Positions 49,237 to 54,520 of a stretch of 64,000 nt of DNA are shown one piece after another. Location of the stretch: the NCBI RefSeq assembly GCF_030817415.1, contig NZ_JAUSZI010000002.1:8184001-8248000 (forward strand), given 5' to 3'. A model generated the notes under the pieces. It saw only the letters and a program-made list of their open reading frames with translations. It made no database searches and was not told the origin of the DNA. The stretch's first letter is position 1. The number at the start of each line of letters is the position of its first letter. Both the position numbers and the translations under genes were made by a program. The DNA is from Streptomyces umbrinus. GTDB taxonomy: Bacteria; Actinomycetota; Actinomycetes; Streptomycetales; Streptomycetaceae.

Positions 49237-49320
49237 GCGCGCTCGCACTCACTTGGTGAGTGGTACAGGGTTGTCCGAAACCTCGAACGCGGTTGTGGCT
49301 CTCTTCGCATTGTTCAGCAC

Positions 49321-50039
49321 TGAGCGTTTTCAGCGTTGCCTCTCCAGGGTGAGGACGGCTTTGGCGATGACGGTCATACGGTTGGGGCTGATGCGAGCTC
49401 TGCGGAAGATCTGCCAAGCCTTCAGTCGTGCCATGCCGCGTTCGACCGGTGCCCTGGCCGCTGCCAGGGCCCGGTTGACGGTGCGCTGGGTGAGGGTGAG
49501 TTCGCCGCCCGGTGGGCGTTTGAGTCCGGTGGTGACCCAGGGGCCGGCGCCCTGGTAGGCGCGGTCGGCAAGGGCCGGGATGCCTTGTCGTTCGCAAATC
49601 CGGATGATGTGGTGGGTGCGGGCGGCGGTCAGGTCGTGCGCGCGGCCCGGCAGCGCGGGTGAGATCCACAGCACCTCACCGGCGGGGTCGGTCACGACCT
49701 GAACGTTCACGCCGTGCCGGCGGTGCTTGGCCGAGTAGTCCGCCCGGCTGTCACCGACACGGTCGCACTCGGCGAGGGTTTCGGATACCCCGAAGCCGGC
49801 CGCGATCCGGGCGAGGGCGTCGTGACGCCGTAGGTACACCAGAGCGACGAGCGCGCGTTGGTGCGGCGACAGTTTGCACCGCCGGTCGCCCTCACGGGTG
49901 ACGATAAGCATCGTGACCCACTCGACCAAAGCATGGGGCAGGTCGAGTGCGGCAGGGTAGATGACCAACGAGGCCCTTGAGCAGCGTGATTGAGACGTCA
50001 GACATCTCGATCAACGGCGCGGGGGCCTCGCTCGTTGCG
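49321..50039 (-). mobile_element. IS5-type element, copy 1 (minus orientation)
   Basis: A 719-bp block shared with 53690-54408 in inverted orientation. The end next to the transposase stop reads TGAGCGTTTTCAGCG in both copies. The other end, at CTCGTTGCG, is where the copies diverge, so it may not be the exact IS terminus. No clear target duplication flanks it. It has an internally deleted transposase. Confidence 0.75.
49330..49968 (-). pseudogene. IS5-family transposase with internal in-frame deletion, copy 1
   Basis: A 212-residue DDE protein. The N-terminal helix-turn-helix region ([26 protein letters not shown]) runs straight into [19 protein letters not shown]. In full-length relatives about 50-60 residues between these parts include LDGT, which carries the first catalytic Asp; here it is missing. 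The second ([12 protein letters not shown]) and third ([13 protein letters not shown]) acidic positions remain. It is therefore probably inactive. TTG is the likely start. The protein is identical to copy 2. Confidence 0.8.
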
Positions 50040-50135
50040 CCTCGCGGGGACCATCACCTGATCGGTGGCCACCTCGAAGAATTCGCTGACACCCCTGCGC
50101 TTGTACTACCCACCGGTTTGACCGGTTCCCGGTAC

Positions 50136-50228: not shown

Positions 50229-51083
50229 ATGGAATACGATCCTGACGCGAACACCTTCTCCGGGGCCCCTCACACAGGACTGCCACAGGTAATGTGGCAC
50301 ATAACGGATGTATGCGCCCTTACGTGCCCATTCTGTTTCTCGACCAAGTCCGGCCTCGGTACTCCGCACAAGTATCTTGAGTCGATCGCGGAGAGACTCA
50401 AGCAGATCGGCGTTCTAAAAGTAGATTTCGGCGGCGGCGAACCCGTTTCGTACGATCGATTCGCTGAGGCTGTCGACTTATGTGAGCGGCGTAGTATGTA
50501 TCTGACCGTGACCACGAGCGGAGTGATCTCGCCGAGGTCCCGGTGCTGGCTTCTGGAAAACCACGAACGTTTCACGCGTGTGATCGTGTCCATAGATGGA
50601 ACATCGATGGTACATGATCGTCTTCGAGGCCGAATCGGAGCCTTCGATGATGCGATGGGCGTTATGACCGACCTACTCGATCTTGGCGCAAAGGTTCGAG
50701 TGAACACGGTACTCACCTCGGTTCTCACGCAAGAAGTGTTGACGGGCCTCCAGCGCGCACTGGAAGAGAAATGTCTGCCGGAATGGTGTCTGATACAGCC
50801 CCACCCTTCGAACGCGAAAGAGTATTTCGACACCTACGCCGTTGAGGACGCAAGCTTCCGCACGCTCGTCGCCCGGGTGCACGAGGAGTCCGACGCAGAG
50901 ACCAAGGTGATAGAACGTCCGCGGTCCGCCTACGTCGGCTACTGGACGCTGCACCCCGGGGGGCGGATGCGTCCTCAGCAGACCGGGGCCGAAGACGGCA
51001 AAGGCTTCCACCTCCTGGAAGTGAGCCTGGAGGAAGCAATGCTCGAAATCAGCAAGGTTCCCGTCAAAGTTCCCACCGAATGA
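50229..51083 (+). CDS. Radical SAM enzyme without SPASM domain
   Basis: A 284-residue radical SAM protein. The cluster motif is C29-x3-C33-x2-C36 (DVCALTCPFCF), the SAM-binding GGGEP is at 68-72, and the barrel continues with TTSGV, VIVSIDGTS and VRVNTVLTS. The C-terminus lacks the Cys-rich SPASM or twitch extension, so only one iron-sulfur cluster is evident. The substrate is unknown: the small protein encoded 12 bases later or a nucleotide is possible. GC and codon bias are visibly lower than in the chromosome. AAGGGG precedes ATG 50229. Confidence 0.88.
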   Translation: MEYDPDANTFSGAPHTGLPQVMWHITDVCALTCPFCFSTKSGLGTPHKYLESIAERLKQIGVLKVDFGGGEPVSYDRFAEAVDLCERRSMYLTVTTSGVISPRSRCWLLENHERFTRVIVSIDGTSMVHDRLRGRIGAFDDAMGVMTDLLDLGAKVRVNTVLTSVLTQEVLTGLQRALEEKCLPEWCLIQPHPSNAKEYFDTYAVEDASFRTLVARVHEESDAETKVIERPRSAYVGYWTLHPGGRMRPQQTGAEDGKGFHLLEVSLEEAMLEISKVPVKVPTE

Positions 51084-51095
51084 CGAGGCTGTAGC

Positions 51096-51425
51096 GTGTC
51101 TGACGAAGTGACGAGGATAGACAACCCCAACTCCTCGGAGTACGTGTCCCAGTTGCTCGGACTCACGATCCAAAATCTTGCCGGGACGGGTGTCGTGACC
51201 GAGGTCACCGACGCGCCCGCTCCAGGCAGAAAGTCGTCCTTAATCGTTGACATCACCATAGGACTGGGTGTTGCTGCCGCGTGGGACATGCTCAAATTTT
51301 CCGCCAGCGCTTTGCGTCCTTCTCGGCGTCCATCGACCGGTGACGAAATCATCTTGAACGGCAAGAGGTATTCGATCTCCGAGATCGACGAGGAAGGCTC
51401 GGATGCCCCCGTCGATGATGAATGA
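51096..51425 (+). CDS. Small protein between radical SAM and caspase genes
   Basis: A 109-residue protein without Cys. A hydrophilic N-terminus (1-45) is followed by a hydrophobic segment (SLIVDITIGLGVAAAWDML, about 48-66), then a short beta-hairpin (DEIILNGKRYSISEID) and an acidic tail. GTG 51096 with GAGG seven bases upstream. The shape (hydrophobic helix then small beta unit) vaguely recalls the EACC1 constant component known next to caspase-type effectors, but similarity is not strong enough to assign it. It may be the regulator, adaptor or radical SAM substrate. Confidence 0.7.
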   Translation: MSDEVTRIDNPNSSEYVSQLLGLTIQNLAGTGVVTEVTDAPAPGRKSSLIVDITIGLGVAAAWDMLKFSASALRPSRRPSTGDEIILNGKRYSISEIDEEGSDAPVDDE

Positions 51426-51437
51426 CCGGGAAACCGA

Positions 51438-53261
51438 GTGAAACAGACGAAAACGGTAGTGGTGTCCATAGGTGTGTCGGAGTATGCCGGCAGCCGACAA
51501 CTTGAAGATATCCCCTGCGCACACCAGGACGCACATAATCTTCACAAAAGTCTGCGTCTTGGGCTTGGCGAAGCGTATGACATGTGGAGAAGCGTCACAA
51601 TGTTGGACCCGTCTGCCAACGAAGCGCTTGCCGTCCTAACGTCGACGTCCAGGGGCCTGCGTGACGAAGAACTGCTGGTCGTCTACTTCAGTGGCCATGC
51701 CCGGCTTCGCAGAAGCGTCCTGTCCTTAGCCTTCTCCGACGCGCTGGATGATGGCCGAGGTCACCTCTCGATATCTGAGCTGGCCCGTAGCTGCGCCGAG
51801 GTGAGAGCCTCGTTGATACTTGATTGCTGTCATTCCGGGGCTGCCGCAAGTATGGCCAACAGGCCCGATATCCTCAGCCCCACGGCGATCTCTGTCCTGG
51901 CATCGAGTGCAGCGTTTTCCACCGCAGTCCACCTGCCCGAGGGGAGCCCTTTCACGACGGATTTGATCAAGGTGCTAGAAGATGCTTCCGTGATCGGGGC
52001 GGAACTTTCACTCGTTACTTTGGCCAAGGAGTTGAACTCGGGTAAGGGTGCACTGGAAAAATGTGTCGTAAATATTGCTGAGGGTGATGAGGATGTCGTC
52101 CTTCTTCAGGAGCAACGCGATGCGGTCGGCGCCAGAGAAACAGCTGACAGGTTCGTCAGTCGACTTGAGAGCGTGGACCGGGCGGCTCGGGAGTTGATGT
52201 GGTACTCGGCAGCCGAACTTCCCCGAGCATATCAATCCGTTCTGGTCGGCGAAGTGTTCTCGGCGGGCATTGCTGGCGAGGCAAGCTGGCTTACCCGACG
52301 TGCGGTCGGGTCATTCTTGGACCGCCAGCCGGGGCACTCTCGCATTCGAAACGAAGTCGCTGGCGACCTGATCAATTCGGAGAATTGGATGGAGGTCTGT
52401 GCCGGTCTGATCGGTGCTCGCCGCCTTTTCGCCACCGACGCCGACCTCCGTACGGCGGCGCTGAACGTTCTCGTCTCTCGCGCCCCGGCTAATGCGACGT
52501 GGCTAGCCAGCATGTACCTAACTGATTGCAGAGAGTTCGACTTCGACTCCACCGAGCGCAGTCAACTGGCGAAAACTTCTTGGGGCATTACAGAGATCCT
52601 TGAGCATTTTCGCGCGGCCGGGAAGGACCGGGAGTGGCTGTCACATTGGGCCCTGGACCTGGCGACGGCCACTCGGGACGATAGCGTACTTGCAGAAGTC
52701 GCCACGCACCTGAGACTCAATGGACTCTTTGTCCCAGCCGGTACAGATGTTACTCAAGTCGCCGAGGAGCCACTCTCCACGTACTTGTACTCTTTGGCGC
52801 CACGGGGAAAGCTGGTGTCATCGAGCGGCAAGTGGTTGCTGTCAAGCCTGTTTGGCAACTGGCGACGGGACGGCAGGTCGAACCTTCGGACATACGCTGC
52901 CAGTAGACGTCCGAGTGCCGTCCTGAAAAGCCTTGAACGCATGGGAGCTCTTCCTGCGGTCGCCTTGCGCACGGCGGTCTTGTCGGACCCTTGGACCGCT
53001 GAGCACCCGGATCGAGTAGAGACCGTCCTGAGCTGGGGTCTCGTGGACGAGTACCCGTGGGTTCGCCAGGCGGCGGTGGAACTGGCCTCCGACGGGCGGA
53101 TCGGGCCGATCACCGAACAGCTCATCGACATGGCCAGACGCCCTGGCCTGTTCGATCTTCTGCTGACCCTCAAAGATCGTGATGGCGGCGCGGGGTCATT
53201 GCTCGAGCTTCTCGAATTGACACCGGTCGAGCGGGCCGCGTTGACCCGGGATGGCTGCTGA
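51438..53261 (+). CDS. Caspase-like (C14) protease with helical repeat C-terminus
   Basis: A 607-residue protein. The N-terminal caspase fold (1-230) begins VVVSIGVSEYAG and has the catalytic His87 in VVYFSGHARL and Cys131 in LILDCCHSGAA, so the dyad is intact. Residues about 240-600 are alpha-helical, with HEAT-like units near the end (EYPWVRQAAVELASDGRIGP) that probably form a sensor or substrate arm. GTG 51438 lies 12 bases after the small protein gene. In known bacterial systems caspase-like proteases kill or arrest the cell once triggered; that role is inferred here. Confidence 0.9.
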   Translation: MKQTKTVVVSIGVSEYAGSRQLEDIPCAHQDAHNLHKSLRLGLGEAYDMWRSVTMLDPSANEALAVLTSTSRGLRDEELLVVYFSGHARLRRSVLSLAFSDALDDGRGHLSISELARSCAEVRASLILDCCHSGAAASMANRPDILSPTAISVLASSAAFSTAVHLPEGSPFTTDLIKVLEDASVIGAELSLVTLAKELNSGKGALEKCVVNIAEGDEDVVLLQEQRDAVGARETADRFVSRLESVDRAARELMWYSAAELPRAYQSVLVGEVFSAGIAGEASWLTRRAVGSFLDRQPGHSRIRNEVAGDLINSENWMEVCAGLIGARRLFATDADLRTAALNVLVSRAPANATWLASMYLTDCREFDFDSTERSQLAKTSWGITEILEHFRAAGKDREWLSHWALDLATATRDDSVLAEVATHLRLNGLFVPAGTDVTQVAEEPLSTYLYSLAPRGKLVSSSGKWLLSSLFGNWRRDGRSNLRTYAASRRPSAVLKSLERMGALPAVALRTAVLSDPWTAEHPDRVETVLSWGLVDEYPWVRQAAVELASDGRIGPITEQLIDMARRPGLFDLLLTLKDRDGGAGSLLELLELTPVERAALTRDGC

Positions 53262-53655: not shown

Positions 53656-53689
53656 TGATCGGGGTACGCCAGTGAGGTGGGGCGGGGGC

Positions 53690-54408
53690 CGCAACGAGCG
53701 AGGCCCCCGCGCCGTTGATCGAGATGTCTGACGTCTCAATCACGCTGCTCAAGGGCCTCGTTGGTCATCTACCCTGCCGCACTCGACCTGCCCCATGCTT
53801 TGGTCGAGTGGGTCACGATGCTTATCGTCACCCGTGAGGGCGACCGGCGGTGCAAACTGTCGCCGCACCAACGCGCGCTCGTCGCTCTGGTGTACCTACG
53901 GCGTCACGACGCCCTCGCCCGGATCGCGGCCGGCTTCGGGGTATCCGAAACCCTCGCCGAGTGCGACCGTGTCGGTGACAGCCGGGCGGACTACTCGGCC
54001 AAGCACCGCCGGCACGGCGTGAACGTTCAGGTCGTGACCGACCCCGCCGGTGAGGTGCTGTGGATCTCACCCGCGCTGCCGGGCCGCGCGCACGACCTGA
54101 CCGCCGCCCGCACCCACCACATCATCCGGATTTGCGAACGACAAGGCATCCCGGCCCTTGCCGACCGCGCCTACCAGGGCGCCGGCCCCTGGGTCACCAC
54201 CGGACTCAAACGCCCACCGGGCGGCGAACTCACCCTCACCCAGCGCACCGTCAACCGGGCCCTGGCAGCGGCCAGGGCACCGGTCGAACGCGGCATGGCA
54301 CGACTGAAGGCTTGGCAGATCTTCCGCAGAGCTCGCATCAGCCCCAACCGTATGACCGTCATCGCCAAAGCCGTCCTCACCCTGGAGAGGCAACGCTGAA
54401 AACGCTCA
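53690..54408 (+). mobile_element. IS5-type element, copy 2 (plus orientation)
   Basis: A 719-bp inverted copy of 49321-50039. Together the copies bracket about 3.65 kb containing the radical SAM-caspase genes. The encoded proteins are identical, pointing to recent duplication or gene conversion. Confidence 0.75.
53761..54399 (+). pseudogene. IS5-family transposase with internal in-frame deletion, copy 2
   Basis: Identical 212-residue product to copy 1, with the same junction [12 protein letters not shown] and the same loss of the first catalytic Asp region. Start TTG 53761. The fact that both copies carry one deletion means it occurred before the duplication. Confidence 0.8.
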
Positions 54409-54520
54409 CTGTGAGTGGTGCTCCCCCACGCGTCTCCTGGCTGGGAACGGATCGTGGCGAGGCTGCGTGGCAGGGGCGGAACGGGGAAGCTGCCCCAACT
54501 GACTTGTGGGGGAAAGGGCT

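What the first reader, a model, noticed from the sequence alone, without database searches (positions are those of the whole stretch)
50229..53261. Radical SAM / small protein / caspase-like protease operon
Three genes with 12-bp gaps encode an intact radical SAM core (CxxxCxxC, GGGEP, no SPASM), a 109-residue protein with a hydrophobic segment, and a caspase with intact His/Cys dyad plus a long helical arm. GC is lower than in all surrounding genes, and the set sits in a defence island between IS copies. Caspases paired with other sensors are known in bacterial immunity; this combination with a radical SAM enzyme is one I cannot name. The radical SAM could make a signal molecule or modify the small protein to trigger the protease.
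Basis: partly seen in the sequence, partly recalled or inferred. Interest (0 to 1): 0.85.

Follow-up and report, generated by a model that had tools for sequence, protein, structure and literature searches.

The report
Viperin-like enzyme encoded beside a caspase
A Streptomyces-like bacterium carries a compact gene trio that pairs a relative of the antiviral enzyme viperin with a small, probably membrane-linked protein and a caspase-like protease; the same trio occurs in two other bacterial phyla, there next to nucleotide kinases, so it is probably a rare, mobile immune module linking modified nucleotides to a death protease.

Summary
In detail: three intact genes with 12-nt gaps, G+C 59.0% against 69.0% for the window, bracketed by an inverted pair of near-identical IS copies in a defence island. 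The radical SAM enzyme is related to viperin: viperin is the best NCBIfam family for it and for 6 of 6 relatives scanned (all below cut-off), and its ten best structural matches by Z are viperins. It forms its own clade and lacks five residues invariant in nine annotated viperins. The caspase is a divergent EACC1-type caspase with a helical arm. The small protein sits where EACC1 sits and has its layout, but homology to EACC1 stayed unproven. The same gene order recurs in a Clostridiales element and an Azospirillum megaplasmid (3 of 3 loci with readable flanks). Both of those carry a nucleotide-monophosphate kinase, of different families, immediately upstream; the window locus does not. I infer a nucleotide-acting, viperin-related enzyme wired to a caspase, probably abortive phage defence; peptide modification of the small protein is a rival. 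No named system with this set was found in the searches made. New variant of a known kind; function untested.

The parts
50229..51083 (+). viperin-related radical SAM enzyme, 284 aa; C29/C33/C36, GGEP at 69-72, family signatures MWH (22-24), EWCxI (185-189), PHPxN (191-195), YxxYW (235-239); no SPASM found
51096..51425 (+). 109-aa small protein with one hydrophobic, small-residue-rich segment (48-66) and a short C-terminal tail; EACC1-like by position and layout, homology unproven
51438..53261 (+). 607-aa caspase-family protease: caspase domain about 5-212 (H87, C131), all-helical HEAT-like arm about 224-604
49318..50046 (-). left IS copy (212-aa DDE_Tnp_4 transposase at 49330-49968)
53683..54411 (+). 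right IS copy, inverted relative to the left one (transposase 53761-54399)

Best explanation
A mobile, probably anti-phage module in which a viperin-related radical SAM enzyme modifies a nucleotide (or deoxynucleotide), with supply by an NMP kinase encoded in the operon in two lineages and presumably by host kinases in the window's lineage. The modified nucleotide, or interference with it by a phage, is read out by a membrane-type small protein that partners a caspase. The caspase's HEAT-like arm serves as sensor or scaffold, and its H87/C131 protease then cuts proteins and stops the infected cell. SHOWN here: gene order conserved in three phyla, intact active-site motifs, viperin fold and kinship, kinases upstream in 2 of 3 loci, caspase plus helical arm, low G+C and IS bracketing. 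INFERRED: nucleotide substrate, product acting as a signal, membrane insertion, protease activation, abortive infection.
Confidence: 0.5

Rival explanations
1. Peptide route: the radical SAM enzyme modifies the 109-aa protein (RiPP-like), and the modified protein activates or becomes a substrate of the caspase.
For: Small ORF directly beside a radical SAM gene in 3 of 3 loci. Kaur et al. 2020 describe a radical SAM domain that 'likely modifies a peptide-effector' in another conflict system, the FtsH ternary one (passage seen). SkfB and SuiB maturases are the next-best folds.
Against: No RiPP-maturase or SPASM family reaches its cut-off among the best 25 families shown per protein. The small protein is the least conserved of the three (20-23% identity to the window protein in the other phyla, 5 invariant columns among 5 rows), whereas the enzyme's active-site strips are invariant. 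In position and layout the small protein resembles EACC1, which is described as part of a two-gene system without such an enzyme. Kinases upstream in 2 of 3 loci.
Confidence: 0.2
2. Direct-acting viperin plus fail-safe: the enzyme makes a chain-terminating nucleotide that blocks phage polymerases, and the small protein and caspase guard it, killing the cell only when the first layer is inhibited or overwhelmed.
For: [quoted passage not shown] coli (PMC9642334, passages); same kinship and kinase evidence as above.
Against: The altered conserved residues do not predict ddh-nucleotide chemistry specifically. In 9 of 9 annotated viperin loci read, no caspase is annotated within the 2.5-4 kb shown (that gene table is incomplete), so viperins usually seem to need no such partner.
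Confidence: 0.2
3. Not defence: a metabolic or developmental module (for example, programmed cell death in multicellular bacteria) that sits in a defence island by chance.
For: EACC1 systems are enriched in multicellular bacteria (PMC7159879); no phage data.
Against: Sporadic distribution (full-length only in the window's own genome in each of four overlapping draws), a relaxase-bearing element and a megaplasmid in the other two phyla, IS copies here, neighbours MzaB/C and McrBC-like genes.
Confidence: 0.1

Closest known systems
Viperin / prokaryotic viperins (SAND; NCBIfam NF038283, PADLOC pVip)
   Different: 73 bits against a cut-off of 180; 14 rows form a separate clade; viperin-invariant N22, N30, N97, S124 and K187 (window numbering) replaced, with own invariants EWCxI, PHPxN and YxxYW; linked to a small protein and caspase, which none of 9 viperin loci read showed as annotated
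EACC1-caspase two-gene conflict system (Kaur et al. 2020, System 4; Pfam PF19953, NCBIfam NF047832)
   Same: 5' short protein with one hydrophobic, small-residue-rich segment and a 3' caspase with a variable C-terminal partner domain; the caspase's only NCBIfam match is NF047832
   Different: Small protein has no PF19953 match (E up to 1); caspase 70.6 bits against a cut-off of 140; a third, enzymatic gene; far rarer (EACC1 in 38 of 61 genomes of the window's genus; this enzyme full-length in 1 of 392, the window's own)
Nucleotide-signal immune systems such as CBASS, Pycsar and Thoeris (recalled, not tested)
   Same: Proposed logic: a nucleotide-acting enzyme next to a membrane or death effector
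   Different: None of the three genes matched a cyclase, CD-NTase or TIR family; a radical SAM enzyme would be the nucleotide-modifying part; a signalling product is not shown
Radical SAM RiPP maturases (SkfB, SuiB)
   Different: No SPASM or auxiliary-cluster domain matched; no strongly conserved candidate peptide

Membership tests
Viperin (NCBIfam NF038283) | curated bit-score cut-off 180 | tested here: not met
   73.4 bits for the window enzyme; 70.9-90.3 for 6 relatives; still the best-scoring family for 7 of 7 proteins scanned
Viperin (NCBIfam NF038283) | CxxxCxxC cluster motif and GGEP, no SPASM, about 270-320 aa | tested here: met
Viperin (NCBIfam NF038283) | overall fold | tested here: met
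   Foldseek ranks 1-8 and VIA ranks 1-10 are viperins or viperin-like enzymes; a shared fold does not show function, and RiPP maturases follow closely
Viperin (NCBIfam NF038283) | residues invariant in annotated viperins | tested here: not met
   positions 22, 30, 97, 124 and 187 (window numbering) are N, N, N, S, K in 9 of 9 viperins and differ in 14 of 14 family rows; H24 is shared by all 23
Viperin (NCBIfam NF038283) | grouping with viperins in a tree | tested here: inconclusive
   separate clade (91/94); new plus viperin not rejected (AU p 0.37) but MoaA, a long branch, falls inside
Viperin (NCBIfam NF038283) | converts an NTP to its 3'-deoxy-3',4'-didehydro form | not testable with these tools
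   needs biochemistry
EACC1-caspase system | EACC1 domain (PF19953) in the 5' gene | tested here: not met
   no PF19953 match at E up to 1; PF19953 rings twice elsewhere in this genome but not here
EACC1-caspase system | distant homology of the small protein to EACC1 | tested here: inconclusive
   profile-profile score above 200 of 200 column shuffles, but in single-sequence tests 3 of 300 and 7-8 of 300 unrelated hydrophobic segments, some overlapping one another, equal or beat the window protein, and the other four family members do worse
EACC1-caspase system | single hydrophobic helix with a small-residue patch | tested here: met
   best 19-residue mean KD 1.3-1.8 in 5 rows against 1.1-2.2 in 31 EACC1; membrane insertion itself not tested
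EACC1-caspase system | caspase domain in the 3' gene with intact His/Cys | tested here: met
   PF00656 34.1 bits against 21.4; H87 and C131 invariant in 7 rows; NF047832 70.6 bits, below its cut-off of 140
Radical SAM RiPP maturase | SPASM domain or a RiPP-maturase model above its cut-off | tested here: not met
   best 25 families per protein shown, none above cut-off; Pfam shows only Radical_SAM above gathering; an RRE domain was not searched for separately
Named defence system with these three genes | a PADLOC model for each gene | tested here: not met
   pVip and a weak 'caspase' (2.1e-4) match, none for the small protein (library of 2023)

The most novel reading that the evidence does not exclude
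A radical SAM enzyme of viperin descent makes a modified nucleotide that serves as an immune second messenger and switches on a membrane-linked bacterial caspase: viperin-type chemistry as the signal generator of a cell-death pathway, with thymidylate-type and phage-type NMP kinases recruited to feed it.
Probability: 0.28. Interest if true: 0.92.

Novelty: new variant of a known kind. Interest (0 to 1): 0.68.

Why it matters
Viperin and caspases are both hallmarks of animal antiviral immunity with bacterial relatives. Here a viperin relative and a caspase share one small operon found in three phyla. If the enzyme's product controls the protease, it would be a radical-SAM-made immune signal. 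If not, it would still define a viperin-related family with changed conserved residues and a testable substrate, and give a compact layered defence to dissect.

Tried and rejected
Rejected: anonymous radical SAM plus unknown peptide. The window enzyme and 6 of 6 relatives scanned have viperin as best NCBIfam family.

Rejected as proven: 'the small protein is EACC1'. Column shuffles looked decisive (0 of 200), but two tests with real unrelated hydrophobic segments (3 of 300; 7-8 of 300) did not support it, so I call it EACC1-like in position and layout only. My first extraction of EACC1 rows read the minus-strand loci in the wrong direction; one search corrected it, and only that alignment was used.

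Led nowhere: genome-contig scan with A1 gave one locus. Viral-contig scans gave nothing with A1; with A6 the same element as L008 plus a partial caspase match, L065, not followed up; with A2 the same element again. Genome draws with the enzyme profile, overlapping, with only the best 6-8 candidates scored per genome: 392 of the window's genus (9 matches at E <= 1e-20, the own genome full-length and eight partial ones at 1e-22 to 1e-21 over about 130 residues, which I treat as other radical SAM families without testing them), 396 of the phylum, 296 relatives and 394 of the class, the last three at E <= 1e-35: only the own genome. Plasmid records: the caspase is found in 1 of 72,556 (Azospirillum, where 104 adds one weak helicase match). 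Phage records gave no caspase match and two partial radical SAM matches. A viperin-family search of 198 genomes rang nowhere, controls included, so it is uninformative. Papers on viperin substrate residues and on prokaryotic viperins were not held, so no residue is assigned a substrate contact here.

No print match: searches (CC-licensed PMC only; listings and starts of abstracts seen, and several lists were capped, e.g. 20 of 476 and 20 of 3,094). 'Viperin' occurs 0 times in the main text of the two EACC1 papers (passage searches). A subscription paper, or one below the capped lists, could still describe the set.

Dropped rows: P0004 was left out of A1; P0004, P0006-P0008 and P0011 were left out of A2 and of the tree as similar to rows kept (one search used 14 family rows, 9 viperins, 5 outgroups). 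Two outgroup rows (MoaA, BlsE) are very long branches.

Full report
WHAT IS THERE. Three intact ORFs lie at 50229-51083, 51096-51425 and 51438-53261 on the + strand, with 12 nt between neighbours. The block is 59.0% G+C; the window is 69.0% and the poorest 3033-nt stretch outside the block is 62.7%. A 729-nt inverted pair of IS copies (99% complementary) brackets it at 49318-50046 and 53683-54411. A DNA search of the 12.4-Mb genome lists 14 matches, of which only these two are (near) full-length (40 of 211 candidate places scored). The arrangement is composite-transposon-like, although a further IS-end fragment lies at the inner right edge and I did not establish target duplications. Neighbours include McrC-like (PF10117, 9.5e-35) and McrB-like AAA genes and a 1387-aa DrmMI/type IIG-like methylase.

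THE PROTEASE. Pfam Peptidase_C14 34.1 bits (cut-off 21.4). The only NCBIfam match is 'caspase, EACC1-associated type' at 70.6 bits, below its cut-off of 140. H87 and C131 are invariant in 7 rows. The arm is all-helical in a model of moderate quality (mean pLDDT 71.4, pTM 0.45), with weak, sub-threshold HEAT matches in relatives. The caspase part matches MALT1, raptor and metacaspases. The whole length, arm included, aligns at 30% with the Clostridiales protein.

THE SMALL PROTEIN. It has one hydrophobic segment and no convincing family match. Versions in the other two phyla are 20-23% identical. It stands 5' of a caspase and has the layout described for EACC1: a single helix with small residues and short alpha/beta flanks (PMC7159879, section 33 read; hydropathy). 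Homology is not proven: 0 of 200 column shuffles reach the profile score, yet single-sequence nulls of real hydrophobic segments reach it in 3 of 300 and 7-8 of 300.

CONSERVATION. The same order, radical SAM - small - caspase, occurs in a Clostridiales MAG next to a relaxase gene (L008) and on an Azospirillum argentinense megaplasmid (L018): 3 of 3 loci with readable flanks. Enzyme identity to the window is 29% and 40%, caspase 30% and 27%. The Azospirillum caspase gene has a frameshift near its start. Two further co-occurrences are inferred from identical organism names and contig lengths in protein listings: Streptomyces mirabilis, enzyme P0005 and small protein P0021, contig 193,619; Nocardia sp. 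NPDC019255, enzyme P0013 and caspase P0025, contig 261,736. These are 2 of the 16 enzymes; for the other 14 the listings neither show nor exclude the partners. For a Bacillus cereus caspase, P0027, I could not see neighbours. The system is rare: a full-length enzyme was found only in the window's own genome among 392 genomes of its genus, and in further overlapping draws of 396, 296 and 394 genomes, with only the best 6-8 candidates scored per genome, against EACC1 in 38 of 61 genomes of the genus.

THE KINASES. In Azospirillum the ORF immediately upstream, overlapping the enzyme gene, is a thymidylate-kinase-family protein (PF02223 7.1e-22; PDB thymidylate kinases to 5.3e-16). In Clostridiales the ORF 48 nt upstream is a P-loop protein related over about 90% of its length to proteins in 30 phage records; of the 20 rows shown, two (33% and 30% identity) are annotated as deoxynucleoside monophosphate kinase and the rest as hypothetical. 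Its own match to that PHROG is weak (0.0015) and it has no Pfam match above gathering, but its Ruminococcus plasmid homologue (39.9%) matches the PHROG at 9.9e-11. The two kinases show no meaningful similarity by BLASTP, so the slot seems to have been filled twice by different NMP-kinase families. In 2 of 9 annotated viperin loci read, an annotated deoxynucleoside kinase lies upstream of viperin (the others, several with hypothetical neighbours). The window locus has an IS where the kinase would be, and no kinase remnant that I recognised by reading the flanks in six frames.

HOW IT PROBABLY WORKS. The kinship and the kinases point to a nucleotide substrate. The small protein and caspase point to the membrane-linked, protease-executed conflict systems predicted by Kaur et al. 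I commit to: enzyme modifies a nucleotide; the product, or disturbance of it, is read by the small protein and caspase arm; the caspase stops the infected cell. Everything after the gene-level facts is inference. Rivals are peptide modification of the small protein (0.2), a direct-acting viperin with a protease fail-safe (0.2), and a non-defence role (0.1).

NOVELTY. Each half is a known kind or a relative of one; the combination is not in the papers my searches showed (CC-licensed PMC only, capped lists), and the word viperin is absent from the main text of both EACC1 papers (passage searches). I therefore call it a new variant of a known kind, with a more radical reading (a radical SAM-made messenger for a caspase) that the evidence does not exclude.

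Noticed in passing
G000:C3:37323-38305 and G000:C2:1446367-1447417 (L001, L002, L019, L020): Two ordinary EACC1-caspase pairs elsewhere in the same genome, both over the family cut-offs, one on the 73-kb contig C3.
   Followed up: partly
L018:6840-7340: A 166-aa ORF with no match in the family libraries overlaps the start of the thymidylate-kinase gene in the Azospirillum operon; it could be a fifth, lineage-specific component.
   Followed up: no
L018:11787-16207: MzaB and MzaC defence genes lie downstream of the Azospirillum copy.
   Followed up: partly
L064, L066 (IMGVR_UViG_3300022753_003565): The Clostridiales element with the same operon is listed in IMG/VR as a viral contig although it carries a relaxase; it looks like a mobilizable element rather than a phage.
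   Followed up: partly
window:56216-60379: A 1387-aa DrmMI/type IIG-like methylase; I did not check for partner genes.
   Followed up: no
window:47923-49236: A 437-aa Ala/Val-rich protein with no confident family between the McrB-like gene and the left IS.
   Followed up: no
window:53583-53649: A fragment resembling the IS end and the sequence next to it (direct-repeat families D3 and D6) lies just inside the right IS copy, hinting at repeated IS insertion at this edge.
   Followed up: no
L065: A second IMG/VR contig with a partial match (39% over query residues 77-144) to the caspase family; context not read.
   Followed up: no
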